Shown here: one piece after another, positions 16,371 to 57,546 of the stretch
Numbering within the stretch: the stretch's first letter is position 1
Layout of the letters: every line of letters starts with the position of its first letter
DNA from: Acidimicrobiales bacterium
GTDB taxonomy: Bacteria; Actinomycetota; Acidimicrobiia; Acidimicrobiales; SZUA-35
Length of the DNA: 64,000 nt
NCBI GenBank assembly: GCA_020629155.1
Contig: JAHDDW010000012.1
Span: 1-64,000 of the forward strand
Direction of reading: 5' to 3'
Made by a program: the position numbers and the translations under genes
The notes under the pieces: generated by a model
What the model saw: only the letters and a program-made list of their open reading frames with translations
The model's database searches: none
What the model was told of the DNA's origin: nothing

Positions 16371-16691
16371 ACCTCGTCCTCGTCACCTATGCACATGCTT
16401 GACATTGATCAACAAGCACTCTATAAACTATACTATCGCTAGCTGTAAGAAATTATCGTTCGGTCATTTCACTGCAAGAGTGGGCTGCAAGGGCACAACA
16501 AAATAGGCAATAAAACCCAACTTTTACCCTGACCAAATCAACAGCCTACTAATGGTTCGAAAGTTGCTACAGTAAGAAGAGTTTTTCAGCCGTTTGGAAG
16601 AATATGGGTTTTCTAGCTATGACAGAAACAGATTTACTGCTCGCCGCAAAGCTAGTTACTGCCACGATGACCAGAAAGTACGCAAAGCAAG
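16371..16691. other. Intergenic region between divergent genes
   Basis: A 321-bp gap holding the promoters of the Gln-rich membrane protein (minus) and the lipoprotein (plus). Apart from the small frame at 16604-16708, nothing convincing was seen: no RNA gene, repeat or clear promoter pair. Confidence 0.5.
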
Positions 16692-16708
16692 ATGCTCACA
16701 TTTCGTAA
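16604..16708 (+). CDS. Possible 34-residue leader-type ORF overlapping the next gene
   Basis: ATG 16604 is preceded by GGAAG (16596-16600) and opens a 34-codon frame (MGFLAMTETDLLLAAKLVTATM...) ending at TAA 16706. It overlaps the start of the lipoprotein gene (ATG 16692) by 17 bp in another frame, an arrangement used for translational coupling. Spacing to the first ATG is short; a second in-frame ATG at 16619 is better placed. No homologue is known to me. Confidence 0.25.
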   Translation: MGFLAMTETDLLLAAKLVTATMTRKYAKQDAHIS

Positions 16709-17762
16709 GATTTCGTTGCTCGCAACAGTGGCTCTACTATCTGTTGCCTCTTCATGCAACGGTAACGCAACCGAGCCGAATCGTTCTTCAACAGCGCAAA
16801 CTCAGCTGTCGCCAGAGACACCTACTACCATTGAGCAGTCTGTTTCCACAACTGCCCGTGTAAATTCAGCAGCACTTTGCGAATCATTAGAAACAAGCGT
16901 TGGCGGCACTGTAGCAACTAGCCAGCTGCAAGAAGCTTCTGGGCTTGTTGCTAGCGCCACACACCAAGATGTCTTTTGGAGCCACAACGACTCTGGTTCT
17001 GAGACAGGGATTTTTGCGTTTAACCAGAAAGGTGAAGACCTGGGGTTTTACCCACTTGCGATCGAAGGAATAGATATAGAAGCGATCTCGTTGCATGACG
17101 GCAAAATATACCTTGCAGATATCGGTGACAACATAAACAGTAGTCAGCGTCGTGATTCTGTTTTTATTTATGCATTCGATGAACCTTCACCAGGTTCTAC
17201 TTCTAACCAGATTGAGGCAATCACCACCTACGAGCTCCGCTACCCCACTGGATCTACCGATGCAGAGGCTTTTTTTATTGATCCTCTTAGCGGAGCATTC
17301 GTAATAATAGAAAAAGCATTTGGCATATCATTCACTAACGGTTTTGGTGCAAAAGCAAGCAATGCAACTATTTACATGGCTAAACCAGATGCACAAAGTG
17401 TCACCGTTCTAACTGAAGTAGGCGAGTTGAACGTTGAGGCATTAGAAAAACTGAGCACCGCTCCTCTACCTGAAGGTCAAGCTAAAGACTACGGTGTCAC
17501 AGGAGCCGTAACGGCAGCAGATATAAGCCCTGACGGCAAGATTATTGCCCTGCGCACGTATGCAACCGTGTGGCTTTATGATCGCGACCCGCAGCAATCA
17601 ATTGCTGCGACCTTAGCTTCACAACCTTGCGAAGCTCCATCTGCGCTTGAACCTCAAGGAGAAGCAATAGCACTACGCACTACTGCTTCTGGTCGGTATG
17701 GTTTTGTAACAATTTCAGAAGGCCAGAACGTCCCTATCCACTACGCACAGACACGCAACTAG
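16692..17762 (+). CDS. Secreted lipoprotein with probable beta-propeller fold
   Basis: 356 residues with a lipoprotein signal (lipobox SVASSC, Cys about 22) and a Thr/Ser-rich linker. The body has repeated beta-strand patterns: ASGLVAS...FWSHNDSG, IEGIDIEAISL, KIYLADIGDN, STDAEAFFID, AADISPDGKIIALRTY, GEAIALRT. These resemble the esterase-like/SdiA-regulated and phytase-like beta-propeller proteins that sit on the outer surface. No catalytic residues can be assigned with confidence. Two Cys (AALCES and SQPCEAP) may pair. It has its own divergent promoter region. Confidence 0.7.
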   Translation: MLTFRKISLLATVALLSVASSCNGNATEPNRSSTAQTQLSPETPTTIEQSVSTTARVNSAALCESLETSVGGTVATSQLQEASGLVASATHQDVFWSHNDSGSETGIFAFNQKGEDLGFYPLAIEGIDIEAISLHDGKIYLADIGDNINSSQRRDSVFIYAFDEPSPGSTSNQIEAITTYELRYPTGSTDAEAFFIDPLSGAFVIIEKAFGISFTNGFGAKASNATIYMAKPDAQSVTVLTEVGELNVEALEKLSTAPLPEGQAKDYGVTGAVTAADISPDGKIIALRTYATVWLYDRDPQQSIAATLASQPCEAPSALEPQGEAIALRTTASGRYGFVTISEGQNVPIHYAQTRN

Positions 17763-17857
17763 CTTTTTAGTGCAGAAGGCGAACTCTGTCCACTTTCTGA
17801 CCGCATAGATACGAAGATATACAGTATCATAAACAACAAGGTTCTAGAAGCAGGTGA

Positions 17858-18517
17858 ATGATGACAGAATTTGAAGATATAGAGCGTTGGGGCAAGCCAC
17901 AACCGTCTGTGCAAATGTCGGAAGGCAACACAGAGAAAAAGAAACGATTGCCCGTAGTTCTCTATTCTTTCCTTGTACTCCTTGGCGTATCGATACTTAC
18001 TTTTTCTCTTTATTATGCCTTCGTTAGAGATTCTGGATCAGAAATTGATGCTGCTGGCCAGCCAGACACCACACTATCTTCGCCCGAGAACACAACTGAT
18101 CCTGTCACGAATGTGCCAGCTCAGAAGCAAGCTGGCACATCAGAAGATGCAGATCCCTCGTTAGAAGTTACTGTTCTTGACCTAGAACTTCTTTCAGGCA
18201 AAGGCGATCCAAACAATAGCGGCACAGCTACTTTGGAGATTAATGCCATGACGGGCGAAGTTTGCTATGAGTTAAACACAGAAAGTTTCCCAGGACCTAG
18301 CCGTAGCCATATCCATGTCGGCACTTCAGATATCACAGGCGGCGACATTATCCTTGAGCTTGACAATCAAGAGAAATACCCAGCGAAAGACTGTGTCCGA
18401 CGAGACACTAGAGATATTGATGCTATTTTGTCGGATCTACCTGGCCATTACATAGAGCTTCATAGCCCCAAAAATGACCAAGGTGAAGAGACACAATCTG
18501 TGCGCGCAACTCGGTGA
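17858..18517 (+). CDS. CHRD-domain membrane protein, N-terminal part of a frame-broken gene
   Basis: 219 residues: a cytosolic N-terminus, a membrane helix (about 32-54), an extracytoplasmic linker, then a CHRD domain (about 103-216) recognised from GTATLEINAMTGEVCYEL, SHIHVGTSDITGGDIILEL and GHYIELHSP. CHRD domains occur in chordin and in many bacterial surface proteins; the role here is unknown. AGGTG precedes the tandem ATGs at 17858 and 17861. The family usually ends in a V-R-G-Q-L-like strand, but here the frame reads VRATR-stop. The other frame reads AQL and continues into the OmpA domain, so this is probably the front half of one protein broken at GCGCGC (18502-18507). Confidence 0.75.
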   Translation: MMTEFEDIERWGKPQPSVQMSEGNTEKKKRLPVVLYSFLVLLGVSILTFSLYYAFVRDSGSEIDAAGQPDTTLSSPENTTDPVTNVPAQKQAGTSEDADPSLEVTVLDLELLSGKGDPNNSGTATLEINAMTGEVCYELNTESFPGPSRSHIHVGTSDITGGDIILELDNQEKYPAKDCVRRDTRDIDAILSDLPGHYIELHSPKNDQGEETQSVRATR

Positions 18518-19070
18518 AGGTACTAGCGCCGCCCCCGATTCAGACCTAGTTGACGCTGAAGACGGCGAAGCTACAACTATCATCGAGAAAGATTCGATAG
18601 TGCTTCAAGGTAACGTGGCTGACCAACAGACCGTTGACCGCCTTGTCAACGCATACAAAGATGTCAACATGGGCAACCTTACAGTGGTTAACAAGTTAAA
18701 GATTGTAGCTGGCTCGCCAGCTCCAACAGGCAAAATCGAGATCAGCGATGCAATTTTGTTTGAAACTAACTCAGCTGAGTTAAACCAGTTTGAAGGCACC
18801 GTTCTAGAAAACTTTGCCACGTTACTTGAAGCTCGACCTGATTGGAAAGTAAGCATCGTAGGTCACACTGACAGCCGTGGCAGTGATGTACTTAACCTCG
18901 AACTTTCTAAACGCCGAGCCAATGCAGTGCGTTCTGCGTTTGAAGAAGCCGGTCTAGATGGCGATCGGTTTATTACTCGCGGCGCAGGTTTTCGTGATCC
19001 TGTCGCAACAAATGAAACAGAAGAAGGGCGCGCACAGAACCGACGCATTACACTTGAAGTCACCCCATAG
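18474..19070 (+). CDS. OmpA-family C-terminal domain, back half of the frame-broken CHRD gene
   Basis: The frame is open from about 18474 to TAG 19070. It encodes an acidic linker, a BON/OmpA-type lead-in (VVNKLKIV) and an OmpA-like peptidoglycan-binding domain (about residues 90-198): FETNSAELN, VSIVGHTDSRGSDVLNLELSKRRANAVRSAF, RAGFRDPVATNETEEGRAQNRRITL. The binding Asp and Arg (HTDSRG; NRR) are present, so it should bind peptidoglycan peptides. The nominal ATG lies inside the CHRD coding sequence without a ribosome-binding site. I read this as the C-terminal half of a membrane CHRD-OmpA protein separated by a shift of one reading frame. Confidence 0.75.
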   Translation: MTKVKRHNLCAQLGEGTSAAPDSDLVDAEDGEATTIIEKDSIVLQGNVADQQTVDRLVNAYKDVNMGNLTVVNKLKIVAGSPAPTGKIEISDAILFETNSAELNQFEGTVLENFATLLEARPDWKVSIVGHTDSRGSDVLNLELSKRRANAVRSAFEEAGLDGDRFITRGAGFRDPVATNETEEGRAQNRRITLEVTP

Positions 19071-19105
19071 CCAAAAGATATCTTAGTTGTTGCTAAGCTG
19101 TGCCA

Positions 19106-20017
19106 ATGAGCTACTTTGGCATGGATCTTGGCGGCACGAAAATTGAAGGTATTGTTTTAAAAGAAGCATCTATTGATTCTGAAGTTTGCAGACTCAGAAT
19201 TTCCACAGAGGCAGCTAAAGGCTATGAACATATTGTTTCACAAGTTGCTTTGCTGCTCGCACAGTTGGAGGAAGCTTCTGGCTGCAAAGCTACAAAACTT
19301 GGTATTGGCACACCTGGCTGCGTCGACCCTCCAACACAGGTATTTAAGAACAGCAACGCGACTTGTCTAAATACTAGGCCTTTCCATAAAGACCTCTCTG
19401 CTGCCTTAGGCGTTGACGTTGAAGTAGTTATTGCAAACGACGCGAACTGTTTTGCTCTTGCTGAACACAACTGGGGTGCGGTGCGCCAAGTCATACCAAC
19501 TGCAACTACTAGTTTTGGTGTGATCATGGGCACAGGCGTCGGTGGTGGCCTAATTATAAACAATACAACTGTTTCAGGTGCCATGGGCATTGCTGGCGAA
19601 TGGGGCCACAACGTTTTAATCCCTGACGGGCCAGACTGTTATTGCGGCAAAAAAGGCTGCGTCGAACAAGTTCTTTCAGGACCAGCGGTAGAAAAATTTT
19701 ATGCAGAGCAAACAGACCTACTGCTACCGCTACAACAAATATATCAGCGTTACCTTGACGCCAGCGATGAAGCAGCAACGGCTGCTATAGAGCGACTGCT
19801 AAACTATTTTGGCATGGCAATAGCAACCATTATCAATATTGTTGACCCAGATGTCGTCGTCATAGGCGGAGGCGTCAGCAATATCGCTGAGCTCTATACC
19901 ATTGGGTACGAACATGCTAAGAACCATGTTTTTAACCCGATATTGACCACCCCTATAGTGGCACCGTTACTTGGAGACAGTGCAGGGGTCTATGGCGCAG
20001 CTGCACTTGTGATGTAA
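19106..20017 (+). CDS. ROK-family sugar kinase (glucokinase-like)
   Basis: About 303 residues from ATG 19106; a GTG at 19100 is also in frame. It has the ATP-binding GMDLGGTKIEG motif, catalytic Asp in NDANCFALAE, the glycine-rich GTGVGGGLI loop and the ROK zinc motif CYCGKKGCVEQ (CxCGxxGC). Bacterial ROK kinases phosphorylate glucose, fructose or amino-sugars at the entry to glycolysis. The absence of an N-terminal DNA-binding domain makes it an enzyme, not a repressor. The exact sugar is not readable from sequence. It ends 4 bp before the convergent gene at 20022. Confidence 0.9.
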   Translation: MSYFGMDLGGTKIEGIVLKEASIDSEVCRLRISTEAAKGYEHIVSQVALLLAQLEEASGCKATKLGIGTPGCVDPPTQVFKNSNATCLNTRPFHKDLSAALGVDVEVVIANDANCFALAEHNWGAVRQVIPTATTSFGVIMGTGVGGGLIINNTTVSGAMGIAGEWGHNVLIPDGPDCYCGKKGCVEQVLSGPAVEKFYAEQTDLLLPLQQIYQRYLDASDEAATAAIERLLNYFGMAIATIINIVDPDVVVIGGGVSNIAELYTIGYEHAKNHVFNPILTTPIVAPLLGDSAGVYGAAALVM

Positions 20018-20021
20018 GCGG

Positions 20022-20498
20022 CTAAGCAACTGTTTTCTTTAACAAATATTGTATGAATAGGCGGTGCATAGGTTTCACAAGTGCGAAATAGAACTTTCCC
20101 GCACGACGCCATAGATACTGAACCGAAGTAGCACCTTCAACAAGTTGGTTATTGTCTTGAAGCCGAAGCGAGAATCGGTATTCCATAAACCCCATCGAAT
20201 CGCCAAACACTATTTCTTGGTCATCACGATCAATAACTTTCCATGAGCCTACCGAAGAGCCCTCGCTATAGCCACCGTTCTCTATTGCTTGCGTAACGCC
20301 TTTTTTCGTAACAGTGTTTGTACTTAGAAGGCGAATCCAGGCTGGTTGTTTCACAAACCAATCAGAAGCCACCTCGTCCACACTAGTGTATTGACCTGGT
20401 TTACATGAGATCTGGAAACGGTCAAGATAATCAGCATTTGGATGTATTGATCCAACAATTGAATTATCATCTGGCTGACATTCAGTTACGCGACTCAT
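20022..20498 (-). CDS. DUF2867-like protein
   Basis: 158 residues without signal peptide or membrane helix. The pattern HPNADYLDRFQI ... FVKQPAWIRLL ... VFGDSMGFMEYRFSLRL ... LWRRAGKFYFALVKPMHRLFI fits the DUF2867 family of small beta-barrel (START-like) proteins, often found alone or fused to NAD-binding epimerases. Biochemical function is unknown. It converges with the ROK kinase and lies downstream of the siroheme genes, 72 bp from cobA. Confidence 0.6.
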   Translation of the reverse strand: MSRVTECQPDDNSIVGSIHPNADYLDRFQISCKPGQYTSVDEVASDWFVKQPAWIRLLSTNTVTKKGVTQAIENGGYSEGSSVGSWKVIDRDDQEIVFGDSMGFMEYRFSLRLQDNNQLVEGATSVQYLWRRAGKFYFALVKPMHRLFIQYLLKKTVA

Positions 20499-28906: not shown

Positions 28907-29548
28907 TTATTCGTCTACCTCATTTTCAGCGTCGAGTTCAGTATTCTCACTGGAGTTTTCACTATCTGCAGCGCTATGCGCCGCTACAGATGCAGGTACT
29001 GGCTTCTTTTGATTTTTTACAAGCACGACAGCGCCTACTGTTGCGATTGTTAATAACAGTGCGGTTGCTTCAAACGCAAGCACATTACGACCAAATAAGT
29101 CTGTTGCTAATTGGTTGATATCTGGCGTAGTGGCATCGATGATACGAGCCTGTTCTTGTGTTGGGGTACCTGTTAAGGCGACAGCGCCATCTTCTCCACC
29201 AGGGCCTGAAAGAAACAAACCAGCGCAGATAATTGCGCAGAATCCGACGCCTGCGAGCACACCAGCATAACGTTGACCGACTAACGGCTCGATACGAAGA
29301 TTTTCTGCTTTATCGACACCAAGTAGCATGATGACAAAAAGGAACAGCACCACGATGGCACCGCCGTAAACAACAACTTGTACCAGCGACAGAAAGTGCG
29401 CTTCTTGCAAGACAAACAAAACGGCAACACCGAAGAACGAAGCGACAAGGCTAAGGGCTGCTCGAACAGGGTTCTTGCTGAGAATAACACCAAGCGCACC
29501 AAGGATAATAATGGCGGCTGAAACAATAAAGACCGAAGCATCAACCAT
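28907..29548 (-). CDS. nuoJ: NADH-quinone oxidoreductase subunit J
   Basis: From ATG 29548 (AGGAGA six bases upstream) this is a 213-residue subunit with five membrane helices, including the conserved VYGGAIVVLFLFVIMLLG helix that contains a pi-bulge in known structures. A charged Glu/Asp/Ser tail of about 30 residues follows the last helix. A longer frame from 29602 would add 18 basic residues and is less likely. The start overlaps the end of nuoI by 8 bp. Confidence 0.94.
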   Translation of the reverse strand: MVDASVFIVSAAIIILGALGVILSKNPVRAALSLVASFFGVAVLFVLQEAHFLSLVQVVVYGGAIVVLFLFVIMLLGVDKAENLRIEPLVGQRYAGVLAGVGFCAIICAGLFLSGPGGEDGAVALTGTPTQEQARIIDATTPDINQLATDLFGRNVLAFEATALLLTIATVGAVVLVKNQKKPVPASVAAHSAADSENSSENTELDAENEVDE

Positions 29549-30227
29549 GTGGCGTCTCCTCTTGTGATGACTGGTCTTGAGATATACGGCTTTGCTTCGC
29601 ACGTAGTGACGCCTTTAGATCGACAGACTGGCCAATTTCAGGCTCGCGAACGCCGTAGCCTAATTCACCAGACCAGCCGACTTTCCCCTCATAGCTTGCA
29701 TCGCCACCAGGGGCAGTTGCTCGCATCCAGCCAGAAGTATGTTCATCTTCGCCGTCACGCCAATCTTCCCAAGGAAGTTGCTTAGGTTTACCCTCGTCAT
29801 CGACGAGCAGTTCGTCTTTGGTATAGATCGCATCGTCACGGTTCGTGAACGAAAATTCAAATAGCTTCGATTCAGTAATAGCTTGCGTCGGACATGCCTC
29901 AACGCACAGATCACAGTGAATGCATCGCAAATAGTTAATCTCATACACAAACCCATAGCGCTCACCAGGAGACACAGGATCTTGCGGCGAGTTCTCAGCG
30001 CCACGGACGTAAATACAGTTTGCAGGACACACACCAGCACATAATTCGCAGCCGATACATTTTTCCATACCGTCTTCATATTTGTTTAAGACATGGCGAC
30101 CATGCAACCGCTCAGGTTTCGGCGCTTTAACGTCGCTTTTGCCGCCCTTGCCGCCACGATAGTTTTTGGTGTTAACACCTTCAAACCATTTTTTTAGCGT
30201 AACTGGAAATCCACCAAGGTAACCCAT
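29541..30227 (-). CDS. nuoI: NADH-quinone oxidoreductase subunit I (2x[4Fe-4S])
   Basis: 228 residues carrying the two [4Fe-4S] binding motifs CIGCELCAGVCPANC and CIHCDLCVEACP that hold clusters N6a and N6b in the peripheral arm. The N-terminus (GFPVTLKKWFEG) is the usual amphipathic membrane-contact segment. A C-terminal extension of about 60 residues beyond the core has no known role. It overlaps nuoH by one base and nuoJ by 8. Confidence 0.96.
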   Translation of the reverse strand: MGYLGGFPVTLKKWFEGVNTKNYRGGKGGKSDVKAPKPERLHGRHVLNKYEDGMEKCIGCELCAGVCPANCIYVRGAENSPQDPVSPGERYGFVYEINYLRCIHCDLCVEACPTQAITESKLFEFSFTNRDDAIYTKDELLVDDEGKPKQLPWEDWRDGEDEHTSGWMRATAPGGDASYEGKVGWSGELGYGVREPEIGQSVDLKASLRAKQSRISQDQSSQEETPHG

Positions 30228-42318: not shown

Positions 42319-43047
42319 CTACAGATCAAAGTGGATGCCGTCGATCCAAGGAAAAACAAAGTTAAACCCAAGACCTCGAAAGAACGACCCAATAATAGAA
42401 AGCACAGCCCAGAACATCATAAAGAATGTAAACAACGAGATAGCAAGCTTTCTATCTTCTGGCTTGTTGCTAACAGTTTTATCGATATAGGGGGCAAGAA
42501 TAAGAGCAAAAAGGCCAATACCTGGGATAGTCACACCAGCGACCATCGGGTGAAACAAGGTCAACAATTCCTGCAAACCAAGGAAGTACCACGGCGCTTT
42601 TGAGGGGTTCGGCGTTTGGTTAACGTTTGCCTGTGATAGAAGTGGAGCATTGACGAATACCGCAGAGAAGAAAAGGAACGTTGTCATCGCTAACATTGCA
42701 CCAAATTCGACCACAATAAGGTGAGGCCAGGTATGCACTTTGTTATGTGGTTTTGATTTAATATCTTGAATCGAACCAGATTTAACGACAGTCAAAAGAC
42801 GTTGCGTATGGCCAGCAGGACCCGTCAGAGAAACAGTAGGAGCTGAAGCCGTAGCAACTTGACCAGCAGACGAAGAAGCAACATCAGTTTTTGAAGCTTC
42901 GACCGACGTACCTTTTGCAGCTTTCGAACGCTTTAAAAGGTGCGCTGGAATCTTTGACGCAGCAGCATCAGAAGAAGAAGCCTTTTCTTCAGCCTTTTTC
43001 TTCGCAGCCTCGGCTCGCTTTTTAAGATGATCTGGAATCTCAACCAT
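42319..43047 (-). CDS. Cytochrome b C-terminal part (subunit IV/PetD-like)
   Basis: 242 residues. Residues 1-100 are a hydrophilic extension with two copies of a short motif: IPDHLKKRAEAAKK (4-17) and IPAHLLKRSKAAKG (33-46). The rest resembles subunit IV with three membrane helices. The Qo-site position usually reading PEWY is APWY here (KAPWYFLGLQELL, about 150-162), so the Glu is absent. It completes the split cytochrome b with the gene upstream (14-bp gap) and precedes qcrA by 15 bp. The same N-terminal motif appears in the cytochrome c at 45049. Confidence 0.88.
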   Translation of the reverse strand: MVEIPDHLKKRAEAAKKKAEEKASSSDAAASKIPAHLLKRSKAAKGTSVEASKTDVASSSAGQVATASAPTVSLTGPAGHTQRLLTVVKSGSIQDIKSKPHNKVHTWPHLIVVEFGAMLAMTTFLFFSAVFVNAPLLSQANVNQTPNPSKAPWYFLGLQELLTLFHPMVAGVTIPGIGLFALILAPYIDKTVSNKPEDRKLAISLFTFFMMFWAVLSIIGSFFRGLGFNFVFPWIDGIHFDL

Positions 43048-43061
43048 TACTTATCACCGAT

Positions 43062-43841
43062 CTAGAGAGGTCCTGAAATGCCGCCATCTTTACGAACTCT
43101 CCAGAAGTGAATTGCCATAAAGATAACAGTAACGAATGGGACAAAAAGAACATGCAACACATACCAGCGCAACAATGTAGCTGAGCCGATCACTGGACCA
43201 CCTAGAAGCACTGACTTGAATTGATCGCCGATAACAGGGGTAAAGCCCATCATATTTGTGCCTACGGTAACGGCCCAAATAGCAACCTGATCCCAAGGCA
43301 ACAAGTAACCAGTAAATGAAAGCAACAGTGTGAGTGTGAGAAGAATGACACCAATAACCCAGTTGAACTCACGAGGAGCTTTATAGGCACCGTGATAGAA
43401 CACGCGTGCCATATGCAAGAACACTGAGATCACCATCAGATGAGCACCCCAACGATGCACGTTACGAAGCATACGACCGAGCGACACTTCATCCATAAGC
43501 CCAGCAGTATTGTCCCAAGCGACTGTCGCATCAGGCGTATAAAAGAACATCAAAAAAATGCCTGTCAGCGTAAGAAGAATGAACAAGAAGAAACTCAAAC
43601 CACCGAGACACAAGGTGTAGCTGACCTTGACCGCATGACGCTTTACCTTGACAGGATGCAAGTGATAAAGCACGCTGTTCATGATCACATACGAACGGTT
43701 ACGTGGGCTATCAGTATAGCCTTTACGAAAAACAGAACCAGGCCTAAATATAGAACTCCATGCCTGCGAACCTTGAACCGCCTCGTACTGAGCGCCAAGC
43801 TTTGCACCCATCAGACCTATAATCTTTGTTAGTACACTCAT
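43062..43841 (-). CDS. qcrB: Cytochrome b6-type subunit of the quinol:cytochrome c oxidoreductase
   Basis: 259 residues, four membrane helices. The heme b ligands are His129 and His143 (HRW...FLH, spacing 14) and His230 and His245 (spacing 15, the b6f-type spacing). Cys78 in TLCLGG matches the cysteine that covalently binds the extra heme ci in cytochrome b6 and in Bacillus QcrB, so a third heme is predicted. GYLLPWDQ is the conserved Qo-side loop. With the separate subunit IV-like gene, this makes a b6f-like split cytochrome b, not the long single-chain QcrB of mycobacteria. Confidence 0.93.
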   Translation of the reverse strand: MSVLTKIIGLMGAKLGAQYEAVQGSQAWSSIFRPGSVFRKGYTDSPRNRSYVIMNSVLYHLHPVKVKRHAVKVSYTLCLGGLSFFLFILLTLTGIFLMFFYTPDATVAWDNTAGLMDEVSLGRMLRNVHRWGAHLMVISVFLHMARVFYHGAYKAPREFNWVIGVILLTLTLLLSFTGYLLPWDQVAIWAVTVGTNMMGFTPVIGDQFKSVLLGGPVIGSATLLRWYVLHVLFVPFVTVIFMAIHFWRVRKDGGISGPL

Positions 43842-55169: not shown

Positions 55170-56201
55170 GTGACACAATACGATTCTTCTCCGCTGATCC
55201 AAGCCGCTCGCCAACAAAAGCCAAGCCATATTCCTGTGTGGTTTATGCGTCAAGCTGGGCGTTCACTGCCTGAGTATTTCCCTGTCAGAGGAGACGGCAC
55301 TATCTTGAATGCCATACAAGTGCCAGAGCGTGCGGCTGAAATCACGCTGCAACCCACAAGGCGCTATGACGTCGACGCTGCAATATTGTTTTCGGATATT
55401 ATCACGCCGCTATGGGCGATCGATTTTGGCATCGATATAACCCCAGGCATAGGGCCAACCTGCGAAAAACCATTTCGCAGTGAAGATGACTTGCAACGTT
55501 TACGTCCGCTTGATCCAAGCAGCGACCTTGCCTTCCAACATGATACCATCAAGATTCTTACCGAAGAACTGACGATCCCACTCATCGGTTTTGCTGGAGC
55601 GCCATTCACGCTTGCCACCTATATGATCGAAGGTAAACCGTCAAAAACGCATCACAATACAAAATCGCTGATGTTCTCTGAACCTGCGTTGTGGCACAAG
55701 CTTTGCGACGCACTCGCCGATATCGCTATCGCATCCTTGCAAGCACAGATCGAAGCAGGCGCAAGCGCCGTCCAACTTTTTGATTCATGGGCAGGCATTC
55801 TACATCCGCAGCATTATCGCGAATTTGTATTTCCGCACAGCCAAAAAATCTTAGCTGCTCTAAAAAGTAGCGGCGTGCCGTTATTTCATTTCGGGACAAA
55901 CACTGCTGAGCTGCTCGATCAGTTCGCCGACGCAGGCGCTGATGTGGTAGGCGTCGACTGGCGCACTCCCCTGTCAGCCGCAAGACAGCGAACTAATAAC
56001 CGAGTCGCGTTACAAGGAAACCTTGATCCGTCAATTTGTCATAGTCCATGGCCTGTCGTTGAACAAGAAGTGAAGCGCATCCTTAATGAAAACGACAATA
56101 CCCCTGGCTATATTTTCAACTTAGGGCATGGCGTGCAACCAACCACGAATCCAGACATTTTGGCTGCTATCGCCAAACTCGTTCATAGCTATGGCTCATA
56201 G
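55170..56201 (+). CDS. hemE: Uroporphyrinogen decarboxylase
   Basis: 343 residues from GTG 55170. The N-terminal signature PVWFMRQAGRSLPEYFPVRG holds the conserved Arg, and the FSDIITPLWAIDFG region holds the catalytic Asp. GFAGAPFTLATYMIEG and the C-terminal NLGHGVQPTTNPD are also typical. It removes four carboxyl groups from uroporphyrinogen III to give coproporphyrinogen III, for the cytochromes encoded nearby. Its stop overlaps the hemY start by 11 bp, so the two are an operon. Confidence 0.96.
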   Translation: MTQYDSSPLIQAARQQKPSHIPVWFMRQAGRSLPEYFPVRGDGTILNAIQVPERAAEITLQPTRRYDVDAAILFSDIITPLWAIDFGIDITPGIGPTCEKPFRSEDDLQRLRPLDPSSDLAFQHDTIKILTEELTIPLIGFAGAPFTLATYMIEGKPSKTHHNTKSLMFSEPALWHKLCDALADIAIASLQAQIEAGASAVQLFDSWAGILHPQHYREFVFPHSQKILAALKSSGVPLFHFGTNTAELLDQFADAGADVVGVDWRTPLSAARQRTNNRVALQGNLDPSICHSPWPVVEQEVKRILNENDNTPGYIFNLGHGVQPTTNPDILAAIAKLVHSYGS

Positions 56202-57546
56202 CGACGTTACTGTTATCGGCGGCGGCATCGCAGGATTAGCAGCAGCCCTCGCATTACAAGATGCTGGACGCGATGTCTCAATCTATGAAGCAAGCAGCCG
56301 TTGGGGCGGCAAAATCAAATCTTCACTTGTTGGCGACACTATGGTTGATGCAGGCCCTGACAGTTTTCTCGCAAGAGCACAACCGACAATCGACCTTTGC
56401 GAACGACTCGGTTTAACCTCTCAGCTGACAACGCCAGTTGCGAAAGTGCCTGCCTATATATATAGAGAAGGCAAGCTCTATGAGTTACCAAAAAAAACGC
56501 TCGTTGGGTTTCCAGTCGACGCTGATGCTGTAGCTGCTTCTGGTCTTGTCTCAGACCAAGCCGTTGCGATGGTCCGCAACGAACCAACACTGCCGGCTCA
56601 CGAAAACTCTGTTGAGACTATCGGTGGGTATTGTAGGCAACGCTTCGGCGACGAAATTACTGACTATCTGATCGATCCGCTTGTAGGCGGCATCAATGCC
56701 TCAAACGTGGATACGCTCTGCCTTCATTCAGCGCTGCCGCTGTTGCAAGAGTCGTTACGCCACAGCCATTCGTTGGTTTTTGGCATGCGACAGGTGCTTG
56801 AAAAACGACGTAAAGAAAGCAGCAGCATTCTCGGTGGCTTAGACACAGACGCCCGCAAACGCAAGCCAACGTTCTATAGTTTTTCAACTGGTATAGCGAG
56901 CTTTATCGAAGCGCTCGTCACCGAGCTACACAAAAGCAAGATGCATCTTGAAACGCCGCATGAGCCAATACATCCTCGTGACTCCAACCGCTATGTTATT
57001 GCTACGCCTGCCTATGGCGCTGCTGAGTTACTCAAGAGCACCAACCCTAAAGCTAGCGAACTGCTTACTCAGATTCGCTATGCAAGCGTTGCGCAAGTGA
57101 CGCTAGCATTTCCGAAAAAGTCAGTTACGCCACTTCTAGATACGAGCGGCATTGTCTTCCCGCGGGCAGACAACATGTTGCTAAGTGCCTGTACTTGGCT
57201 TAGCTCTAAATGGAATCATTATGCTACCGATGATTCTATTTTGTTACGACTAACAACAGGTCGCTACGGCAACGATTCGCACACTGCTGCGCTGAGTAAT
57301 GATGAGCTAACAACTACACTGCTGAAAGACATACAACAAGTCTTGACTATACATGCCGACCCTACGGCAGTTAGAGTCCAACGCTGGCCTCGATCGTTCC
57401 CACAATATGAGCCTGGGCACAATAAACTAGTGGCAGAAATCCGCCAAAGCCTACAGCACAAAACACCAAATATTACTCTTGCTGGAGCAGCCTATGACGG
57501 CATCGGCATACCAGCGTGCGTTCATAGCGGCATAGAAGCAGCTTAG
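56191..57546 (+). CDS. hemY: Protoporphyrinogen/coproporphyrinogen oxidase (HemY/CgoX type)
   Basis: About 451 residues from ATG 56191. The FAD-binding Rossmann motif VTVIGGGIAGLAAALALQDAG is at the N-terminus, with RWGGKI, DAGPDSFL and LIDPLVGGINASNVDTL; the end AGAAYDGIGIPACVHSG is the C-terminal FAD contact. In actinobacteria this oxygen-dependent enzyme generally makes coproporphyrin III (CgoX role). It overlaps hemE by 11 bp. A longer frame begins within hemE (56128) but adds nothing family-like. Confidence 0.93.
   Translation: MAHSDVTVIGGGIAGLAAALALQDAGRDVSIYEASSRWGGKIKSSLVGDTMVDAGPDSFLARAQPTIDLCERLGLTSQLTTPVAKVPAYIYREGKLYELPKKTLVGFPVDADAVAASGLVSDQAVAMVRNEPTLPAHENSVETIGGYCRQRFGDEITDYLIDPLVGGINASNVDTLCLHSALPLLQESLRHSHSLVFGMRQVLEKRRKESSSILGGLDTDARKRKPTFYSFSTGIASFIEALVTELHKSKMHLETPHEPIHPRDSNRYVIATPAYGAAELLKSTNPKASELLTQIRYASVAQVTLAFPKKSVTPLLDTSGIVFPRADNMLLSACTWLSSKWNHYATDDSILLRLTTGRYGNDSHTAALSNDELTTTLLKDIQQVLTIHADPTAVRVQRWPRSFPQYEPGHNKLVAEIRQSLQHKTPNITLAGAAYDGIGIPACVHSGIEAA

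What the first reader, a model, noticed from the sequence alone, without database searches (positions are those of the whole stretch)
17858..19070. CHRD-OmpA membrane protein broken at a GC dinucleotide run
The CHRD frame ends at VRATR-stop, but the overlapping frame gives AQL (matching the family's V-R-G-Q-L ending) and continues through a linker into a complete OmpA domain. Adding one GC to GCGCGC at 18502-18507 restores V-R-A-Q-L and a single protein of about 400 residues. The CHRD-OmpA pairing on a membrane anchor is itself unusual: it would tie a CHRD domain to peptidoglycan. The dinucleotide run could allow switching by slippage.
Basis: partly seen in the sequence, partly recalled or inferred. 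Interest (0 to 1): 0.55.

Follow-up and report, generated by a model that had tools for sequence, protein, structure and literature searches.

The report
Broken wall-anchored CHRD-OmpA membrane protein
One gene for a membrane protein that ties a barrel-shaped CHRD domain to the bacterial cell wall is whole in related bacteria but is cut in two by a small frame shift in this genome, most likely a private mutation or an assembly slip and not a genetic switch.

Summary
ORF 17858-18517 ends in a CHRD domain (PF07452). ORF 18474-19070, in another frame, holds a BON-like stretch and an OmpA domain (PF00691). They are halves of one gene. A profile of fused relatives finds 25 full-length CHRD-BON-like-OmpA copies, each in one open frame, in 14 of the 38 other genomes held of the family. 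A CHRD profile over the same genomes, with the unfused loci checked, shows no second split pair. The FEDIExW tag at the start of the CHRD ORF heads seven other frames in this genome and one in G001, all eight with an OmpA domain. Slippage switching is not supported: (GC)3 is short, commonplace (9 in the window, 27.3 expected) and absent at the junction in 17 of 17 relatives read. No other broken gene was recognised among 61 window ORFs. A real private frameshift seems somewhat likelier than an assembly error; reads would decide. The cut lies in the last CHRD strand, and the truncated barrel is still predicted complete, so the product would be a membrane-anchored CHRD without its wall anchor. 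The intact architecture resembles mycobacterial ArfA/OmpATb with a CHRD barrel added.

The parts
17858..18517 (+). First ORF (219 aa): short cytoplasmic part, one transmembrane helix, linker, CHRD domain; ends VRATR-stop (start may be 17861)
17870..17890 (+). Codons for the FEDIExW tag, shared with TM-OmpA paralogs of the same genome
17954..18010 (+). Predicted transmembrane helix (aa 33-51, mean hydropathy 2.36)
18206..18487 (+). CHRD domain, Pfam match aa 117-210; SOD-like eight-stranded barrel predicted
18502..18507 (+). (GC)3 run at the favoured place of the frame break, inside the last CHRD strand
18515..18517 (+). TGA stop that ends the first ORF early relative to the family
18474..19070 (+). 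Second ORF (other frame): end of CHRD, linker, BON-like stretch, OmpA; its ATG at 18474 has no clear ribosome-binding site
18573..18710 (+). BON-like stretch (approximate limits) before the OmpA domain
   Evidence: no Pfam BON match in the window ORF itself
18756..19043 (+). OmpA C-terminal, peptidoglycan-binding type domain (PF00691, profile 1-98 of 98)

Best explanation
This is one gene. It encodes a bitopic membrane protein: a short cytoplasmic tag, one transmembrane helix, a CHRD (SOD-like) barrel, a BON-like stretch and a C-terminal OmpA domain that should hold the outer part to peptidoglycan. In this sequence a private net frame shift near the end of the CHRD code splits it, so that translation stops two codons after V-R-A. 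The expected product is a membrane-anchored CHRD barrel without its wall anchor; the OmpA half has no clear start and no signal of its own and is probably not made. Shown: the two frames, the domains, the fused state in relatives, the shared tag. Inferred: peptidoglycan binding, topology, loss of the OmpA half. Between a real recent mutation (about 60%) and an assembly error (about 35%) the tools cannot decide, and that split is my judgement; the rest is recoding or switching.
For: Both domains over Pfam cut-offs. 25 full-length fused copies in single open frames in 14 of 38 other family genomes; the window copy matches only model positions 131-310. A CHRD profile finds 37 matches in 18 of 39 family genomes; the unfused loci fetched show no OmpA in any of six frames, with the window locus as positive control. 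17 of 17 relatives in frame at the junction. Frame-joined reading scores 296.2 bits against 216.4 and 72.1 for the halves. FEDIExW tag: 8 of 9 pattern hits in the genome lie at the start of open frames; seven of those eight frames carry a hydrophobic helix and an intact OmpA domain over the cut-off, the eighth is the CHRD ORF; the G001 hit is also TM-OmpA; reversed-pattern control 0. No other broken gene recognised among the 61 ORFs scanned. Truncated CHRD still predicted with all eight strands, pLDDT 83.5.
Against: The two other genomes of the genus have no CHRD match, so no close relative shows the intact gene; the nearest fused copies are about 50% identical over the OmpA half. The OmpA frame has no further lesion over 184 codons, which would also fit an assembly error or read-through. 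The break position is favoured by only about 2 bits.
Confidence: 0.9

Rival explanations
1. Assembly or sequencing error: the organism's gene is intact and fused, and the assembled consensus lost two bases. (This shares the one-gene reading with the best explanation.)
For: The OmpA frame is otherwise undamaged and no relative in the family shows a split pair. The genome is a draft in 59 contigs.
Against: No other split gene recognised among 61 window ORFs, so the assembly is not rich in indels; completeness 97.44%.
Confidence: 0.35
2. Phase-variable switch: slippage in the GC run toggles the protein between wall-anchored and unanchored CHRD forms.
For: The favoured break lies at a dinucleotide run, and the truncated CHRD is predicted to fold completely, so both forms could be made.
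Against: Three units only; GCGCGC is rarer than chance in the window (9 against 27.3); none of 17 relatives has GCGCGC in the five junction codons; no second allele seen.
Confidence: 0.03
3. Programmed ribosomal frameshifting makes both a short and a full-length protein.
For: The two frames overlap and the downstream frame stays open; an RNA stem in 18480-18600 has z -1.51, with 13 of 200 shuffles as stable.
Against: The 25 full-length relatives need no shift; no homopolymeric slippery site at the junction; the stem is not significant.
Confidence: 0.03
4. Two genuine separate genes, with the OmpA half translated from 18474 or 18600.
For: An ATG at 18474 and a GTG at 18600 exist in the OmpA frame.
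Against: No clear Shine-Dalgarno before either, start at 18474 inside the CHRD code, no evident TM helix or signal peptide in the second ORF (read by eye), fused state in relatives.
Confidence: 0.02

Closest known systems
ArfA / OmpATb (Rv0899) of Mycobacterium tuberculosis
   Same: Membrane-anchoring N-terminal part, BON-type central domain, C-terminal OmpA domain (PMC6151718, passages). Best solved-structure match of the family profile: 2l26, E 1.4e-32, profile positions 148-309, i.e. BON-like and OmpA parts.
   Different: No CHRD domain in the published description. Here a CHRD barrel sits between membrane helix and BON-like stretch, and this copy is frame-shifted. The arf operon partners were not looked for.
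CHRD domain (PF07452), e.g. [quoted passage not shown]
   Same: Pfam cut-off met. Predicted eight-stranded barrel; the 50 rows listed by VIA-align are Cu,Zn SODs or SOD-like chaperone domains, Z up to 9.0, as reported for chordin (PMC13382577, passages).
   Different: Single bacterial CHRD tethered to membrane and wall; chordin CHRDs are extracellular, in fours, and bind glycosaminoglycans. Foldseek alone gave no match at E 0.001 or below (best 0.028).
Fused TM-CHRD-BON-like-OmpA proteins of other genera of the same family (e.g. L003/L098, L007/L100)
   Same: Same domain order with an in-frame junction.
   Different: Most have a longer cytoplasmic part: of 7 scanned with Pfam, 3 carry DUF937 over its cut-off (L003, L005, L007), 2 weaker (L006, L009), 2 none (L004, L024). 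The window protein has only a short FEDIExW tag.
TM-OmpA paralogs in the same genome (e.g. L097:3925-5262)
   Same: FEDIExW tag, one TM helix, C-terminal OmpA over the cut-off; one passes the BON cut-off (L127).
   Different: No CHRD; the genome has one CHRD match only.

Membership tests
CHRD domain proteins (PF07452) | Profile match over the curated cut-off | tested here: met
   34.5 bits against 24.1
CHRD domain proteins (PF07452) | SOD-like eight-stranded barrel | tested here: met
   Predicted model with eight strands; VIA-align Z 9.0 to human SOD1 3h2q, rmsd 2.6 over 103 residues; Foldseek's best E only 0.028
OmpA C-terminal domain family (PF00691) | Profile match over the curated cut-off, full length | tested here: met
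   75.7 bits against 27.2, profile 1-98 of 98
OmpA C-terminal domain family (PF00691) | Binding of peptidoglycan | not testable with these tools
   Inferred from the family only
ArfA/OmpATb-like proteins | Membrane helix, then BON-type domain, then OmpA in one chain | tested here: inconclusive
   Order present in relatives and, across two frames, here; BON in these CHRD proteins stays under Pfam cut-offs or is not reported; the profile covers BON-like and OmpA parts of 2l26
ArfA/OmpATb-like proteins | arfABC operon context | not tested
   Neighbours here are an unassigned 356-aa ORF and a ROK-family ORF; arfB and arfC were not searched for
Phase-variable (contingency) loci | Long, hypermutable tandem repeat in the reading frame | tested here: not met
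   Three GC units, rarer than chance in the window
Phase-variable (contingency) loci | Alternative repeat lengths in a population | not testable with these tools
   No reads; no second genome of the species held
Programmed frameshift genes | Shift site conserved in relatives | tested here: not met
   25 full-length relatives in one frame; no second split pair among the family's CHRD loci checked
Programmed frameshift genes | Stimulatory RNA structure downstream | tested here: inconclusive
   z -1.51, 13 of 200 shuffles as stable

The most novel reading that the evidence does not exclude
The break is a real, reversible length change. The population carries both lengths and so displays a CHRD barrel either clamped to peptidoglycan or free on a membrane stalk; the cut falls just where the barrel is already complete, so both forms would be functional.
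Probability: 0.03. Interest if true: 0.6.

Novelty: new variant of a known kind. Interest (0 to 1): 0.27.

Why it matters
The break itself is ordinary. What is worth keeping is the intact family: membrane-anchored proteins of an Acidimicrobiales family that put a SOD-like CHRD barrel in front of an ArfA-like BON/OmpA wall anchor. I know of no settled role for bacterial CHRD domains (recalled), and this architecture places one at a defined site between membrane and wall, which makes a role testable. It also warns against reading split CHRD and OmpA genes in drafts as two proteins.

Tried and rejected
Slippage switch: rejected on repeat length, frequency and lack of conservation. Recoding: no conserved site, weak RNA fold. 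Separate translation of OmpA: no clear start signals. Indel-rich assembly: all 61 ORFs (60 aa or more, overlaps thinned) were scanned with Pfam. 48 had a match and 13 had none; a break in those 13 could not be recognised this way. No second split domain was recognised. The adjacent cytochrome b N- and C-terminal ORFs (43062-43841 and 42319-43047) I take as a natural petB/petD-like split (recalled, not tested). Overlapping ORFs at 28907-30227 and 55170-57546 proved to be different genes.

A weak point found on re-checking: the threshold (1e-30) would have missed the CHRD half of a split relative, as it missed the window's own. I therefore ran a CHRD profile over the 39 family genomes: 37 matches in 18 genomes, of which 26 lie in the 25 fused frames (L005 has two) and one is the window. 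Of the other 10, three touch contig ends (G021:C131, G023:C181, G035:C78), three are separate small or other proteins (G012:C71, G034:C311, G036:C133), and four lie in two very long frames (G024:C166, G012:C185), which I did not examine. Around the first six, no BON/OmpA-half match was found in any frame of the stretches held, with the window locus as positive control (G034:C311 also read).

Synteny: a ROK relative in genus member G002 lies on a contig where I saw, by eye, no OmpA or CHRD ORF beside it. Ten ORFs chosen from the flanks of L098-L103: seven have a Pfam match, none a family in common between loci. DNA search of the genus with 16600-20100 gave only a 98-base weak match in G002, in the ROK region. 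Order and class searches (397 and 395 genomes, drawn samples that overlap; threshold 1e-50; at most 5 candidates scored per genome) gave no full-length match outside the family, and one partial (model 113-309, G079): a limited test. The first scan of the genome collection, with the CHRD ORF, found no relative. The six loci of the second scan are not independent: L098, L100, L101, L102 and L103 have the contig lengths of G019:C2, G033:C22, G027:C9, G014:C394 and G011:C102, already counted.

Fold search of the three-domain model (pTM 0.43) is dominated by OmpA, so CHRD was folded and searched alone. phmmer of the CHRD ORF against solved structures gave nothing up to E 1.

Papers: all of 'CHRD domain', 'OmpA', 'peptidoglycan' together: one paper, PMC3608174, whose single CHRD passage does not mention OmpA; 'DUF937' with 'OmpA': none; 'CHRD domain'/'bacteria'/'OmpA' any two: 20 of 7,429 listed, none of the listed titles on such a fusion. 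Open-access library only. Other listings.

Full report
ORF 17858-18517 and ORF 18474-19070 lie on the + strand in different frames and overlap by 44 bases. The first carries a hydrophobic helix (aa 33-51, mean hydropathy 2.36) and a CHRD domain; the second carries a full OmpA domain. The genome is a draft of 3.17 Mb in 59 contigs, 97.44% complete, with this one CHRD match.

Relatives settle that these are halves of one gene. The CHRD ORF finds matches in 18 of 61 genomes searched, its own included; reading the open frames shows long proteins with TM, CHRD, linker, BON-like stretch and OmpA in many, and plain CHRD proteins in some. In the 17 fused relatives read, the junction is [IVL]-R-[AGS]-[QR]-[LIVM] in frame, and none has GCGCGC in those codons. 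A profile of 16 of them, run over the 39 genomes held of the family, finds 25 full-length copies in single open frames without inner stops, in 14 of the 38 other genomes; the window copy is matched only from model position 131 on. Because that threshold would hide the CHRD half of a split copy, I searched again with a CHRD profile: 37 matches in 18 of 39 genomes. 26 lie in the 25 fused frames, one is the window, and ten lie elsewhere. For the six loci of those ten that I held, no BON/OmpA-half match lies in any of the six frames, while the window locus is found as control; the other four matches lie in two very long frames not examined. So no second split pair was found.

A profile score for joined readings of the two frames is 289-296 bits for joins from 18463 to 18514, against 72.1 and 216.4 for the halves, and is highest for a join at 18505 or 18508. 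Other join points are only a few bits lower, so the exact position is the best guess, not a proof.

A second, independent line comes from the start of the CHRD ORF, MTEFEDIERW. A DNA pattern for F-[ED]-[ED]-I-[ED]-x-W gives nine hits in this genome, one in G001 and none in G002, with no hit for the reversed control. Eight of the nine begin within the first 17 residues of an open frame. Seven of these frames have a strongly hydrophobic 19-mer (mean 2.05-2.52) after the tag and an OmpA domain over the Pfam cut-off; the eighth is the CHRD ORF. The G001 hit is of the same kind. The ninth, on C15, is at residue 131 of a DUF3800 protein. A tag that otherwise heads TM-OmpA proteins thus heads the CHRD ORF, whose OmpA lies in the other frame.

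The architecture recalls ArfA/OmpATb (Rv0899) of M. tuberculosis: a membrane-anchoring N-terminal domain, a BON-type central domain and a further C-terminal domain (PMC6151718, passages read), which solved entries call OmpA-like. The family profile's best solved match is Rv0899, 2l26, E 1.4e-32. BON hits in the CHRD proteins stay under Pfam cut-offs, though one tagged paralog passes. The addition is the CHRD barrel. A predicted model of L098's CHRD-to-end part (mean pLDDT 79.8, pTM 0.43, six sequences) has eight CHRD strands, a BON-like unit and an OmpA fold. The last CHRD strand is residues 112-116, T-I-R-A-Q, which is where the window frame breaks. The window's own CHRD, as it stands, is still predicted with eight strands (pLDDT 83.5, last strand 120-124, S-V-R-A-T). 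The 50 rows listed by VIA-align are Cu,Zn SODs or SOD-like chaperone domains with Z up to 9.0; Foldseek's best E is 0.028, and its list holds some other folds too. A CHRD-SOD likeness is reported for human chordin (PMC13382577, passages read).

What the break does. If real, translation ends at 18515, leaving a membrane-anchored CHRD without wall anchor. The OmpA frame offers an ATG at 18474 and a GTG at 18600 without clear ribosome-binding sites. The OmpA frame has no further damage over 184 codons, so the event is recent, or is an assembly error. All 61 window ORFs were scanned with Pfam and no second split domain was recognised; 13 had no match and are uninformative. I give about 60% to a real private mutation and 35% to an error; this division is judgement.

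Switching by slippage is the weak part of the finding. The run has three units; nine such hexamers occur in the window where shuffles give 27.3, and no run has four or more units. The relatives read do not keep it. An RNA stem nearby is not significant.

Spread. In the family, fused copies occur in the genera labelled g3, g8 and g10 and, broken, in the window's genus g1; the two other g1 genomes have no CHRD match. No full-length match was seen outside the family in samples of 397 order and 395 class genomes, with the limits noted. Six named loci in the genome collection, all with the CHRD-to-OmpA region in one frame, are titled Acidimicrobiales, Acidimicrobiaceae or Acidimicrobiia MAGs; at least five are contigs already counted under unnamed handles, and it is from them that I infer the window's order.

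Noticed in passing
window 17870-17890; G000 C1, C3, C5, C20, C30, C48 (two); G001 C45 (L125-L134): A short N-terminal FEDIExW-type tag is shared by seven TM-OmpA genes of this genome, the CHRD ORF, and one TM-OmpA gene in G001, although the outer parts differ. It may be a docking or localisation signal on the cytoplasmic side.
   Followed up: partly
L003, L004, L006-L011, L013, L021, L023, L024: 12 of 17 fused relatives have a YPPP motif before the CHRD domain, in place of the tag; 3 of 7 scanned also have DUF937 over the cut-off.
   Followed up: partly
G027:C9, G034:C406, G061:C35, G000:C48: Copies of these OmpA-type genes lie close together on the same contig, suggesting tandem duplication.
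   Followed up: no
L005 (G009:C10): One relative has two CHRD domains in tandem before the BON-like and OmpA parts.
   Followed up: no
A1 and A6 alignments of the CHRD domain: An HIH-type motif (second His invariant in A1), a later His (90% or more) and two invariant cysteines mark these CHRD barrels, which recalls metal ligands of Cu,Zn SOD (recalled); not tested.
   Followed up: no
G024:C166 and G012:C185: Two CHRD-like matches each in open frames of 2294 and 1885 aa, very long proteins of another kind.
   Followed up: no
window 42319-43841: Cytochrome b is encoded as separate N- and C-terminal ORFs next to a Rieske ORF and a cytochrome c ORF.
   Followed up: no
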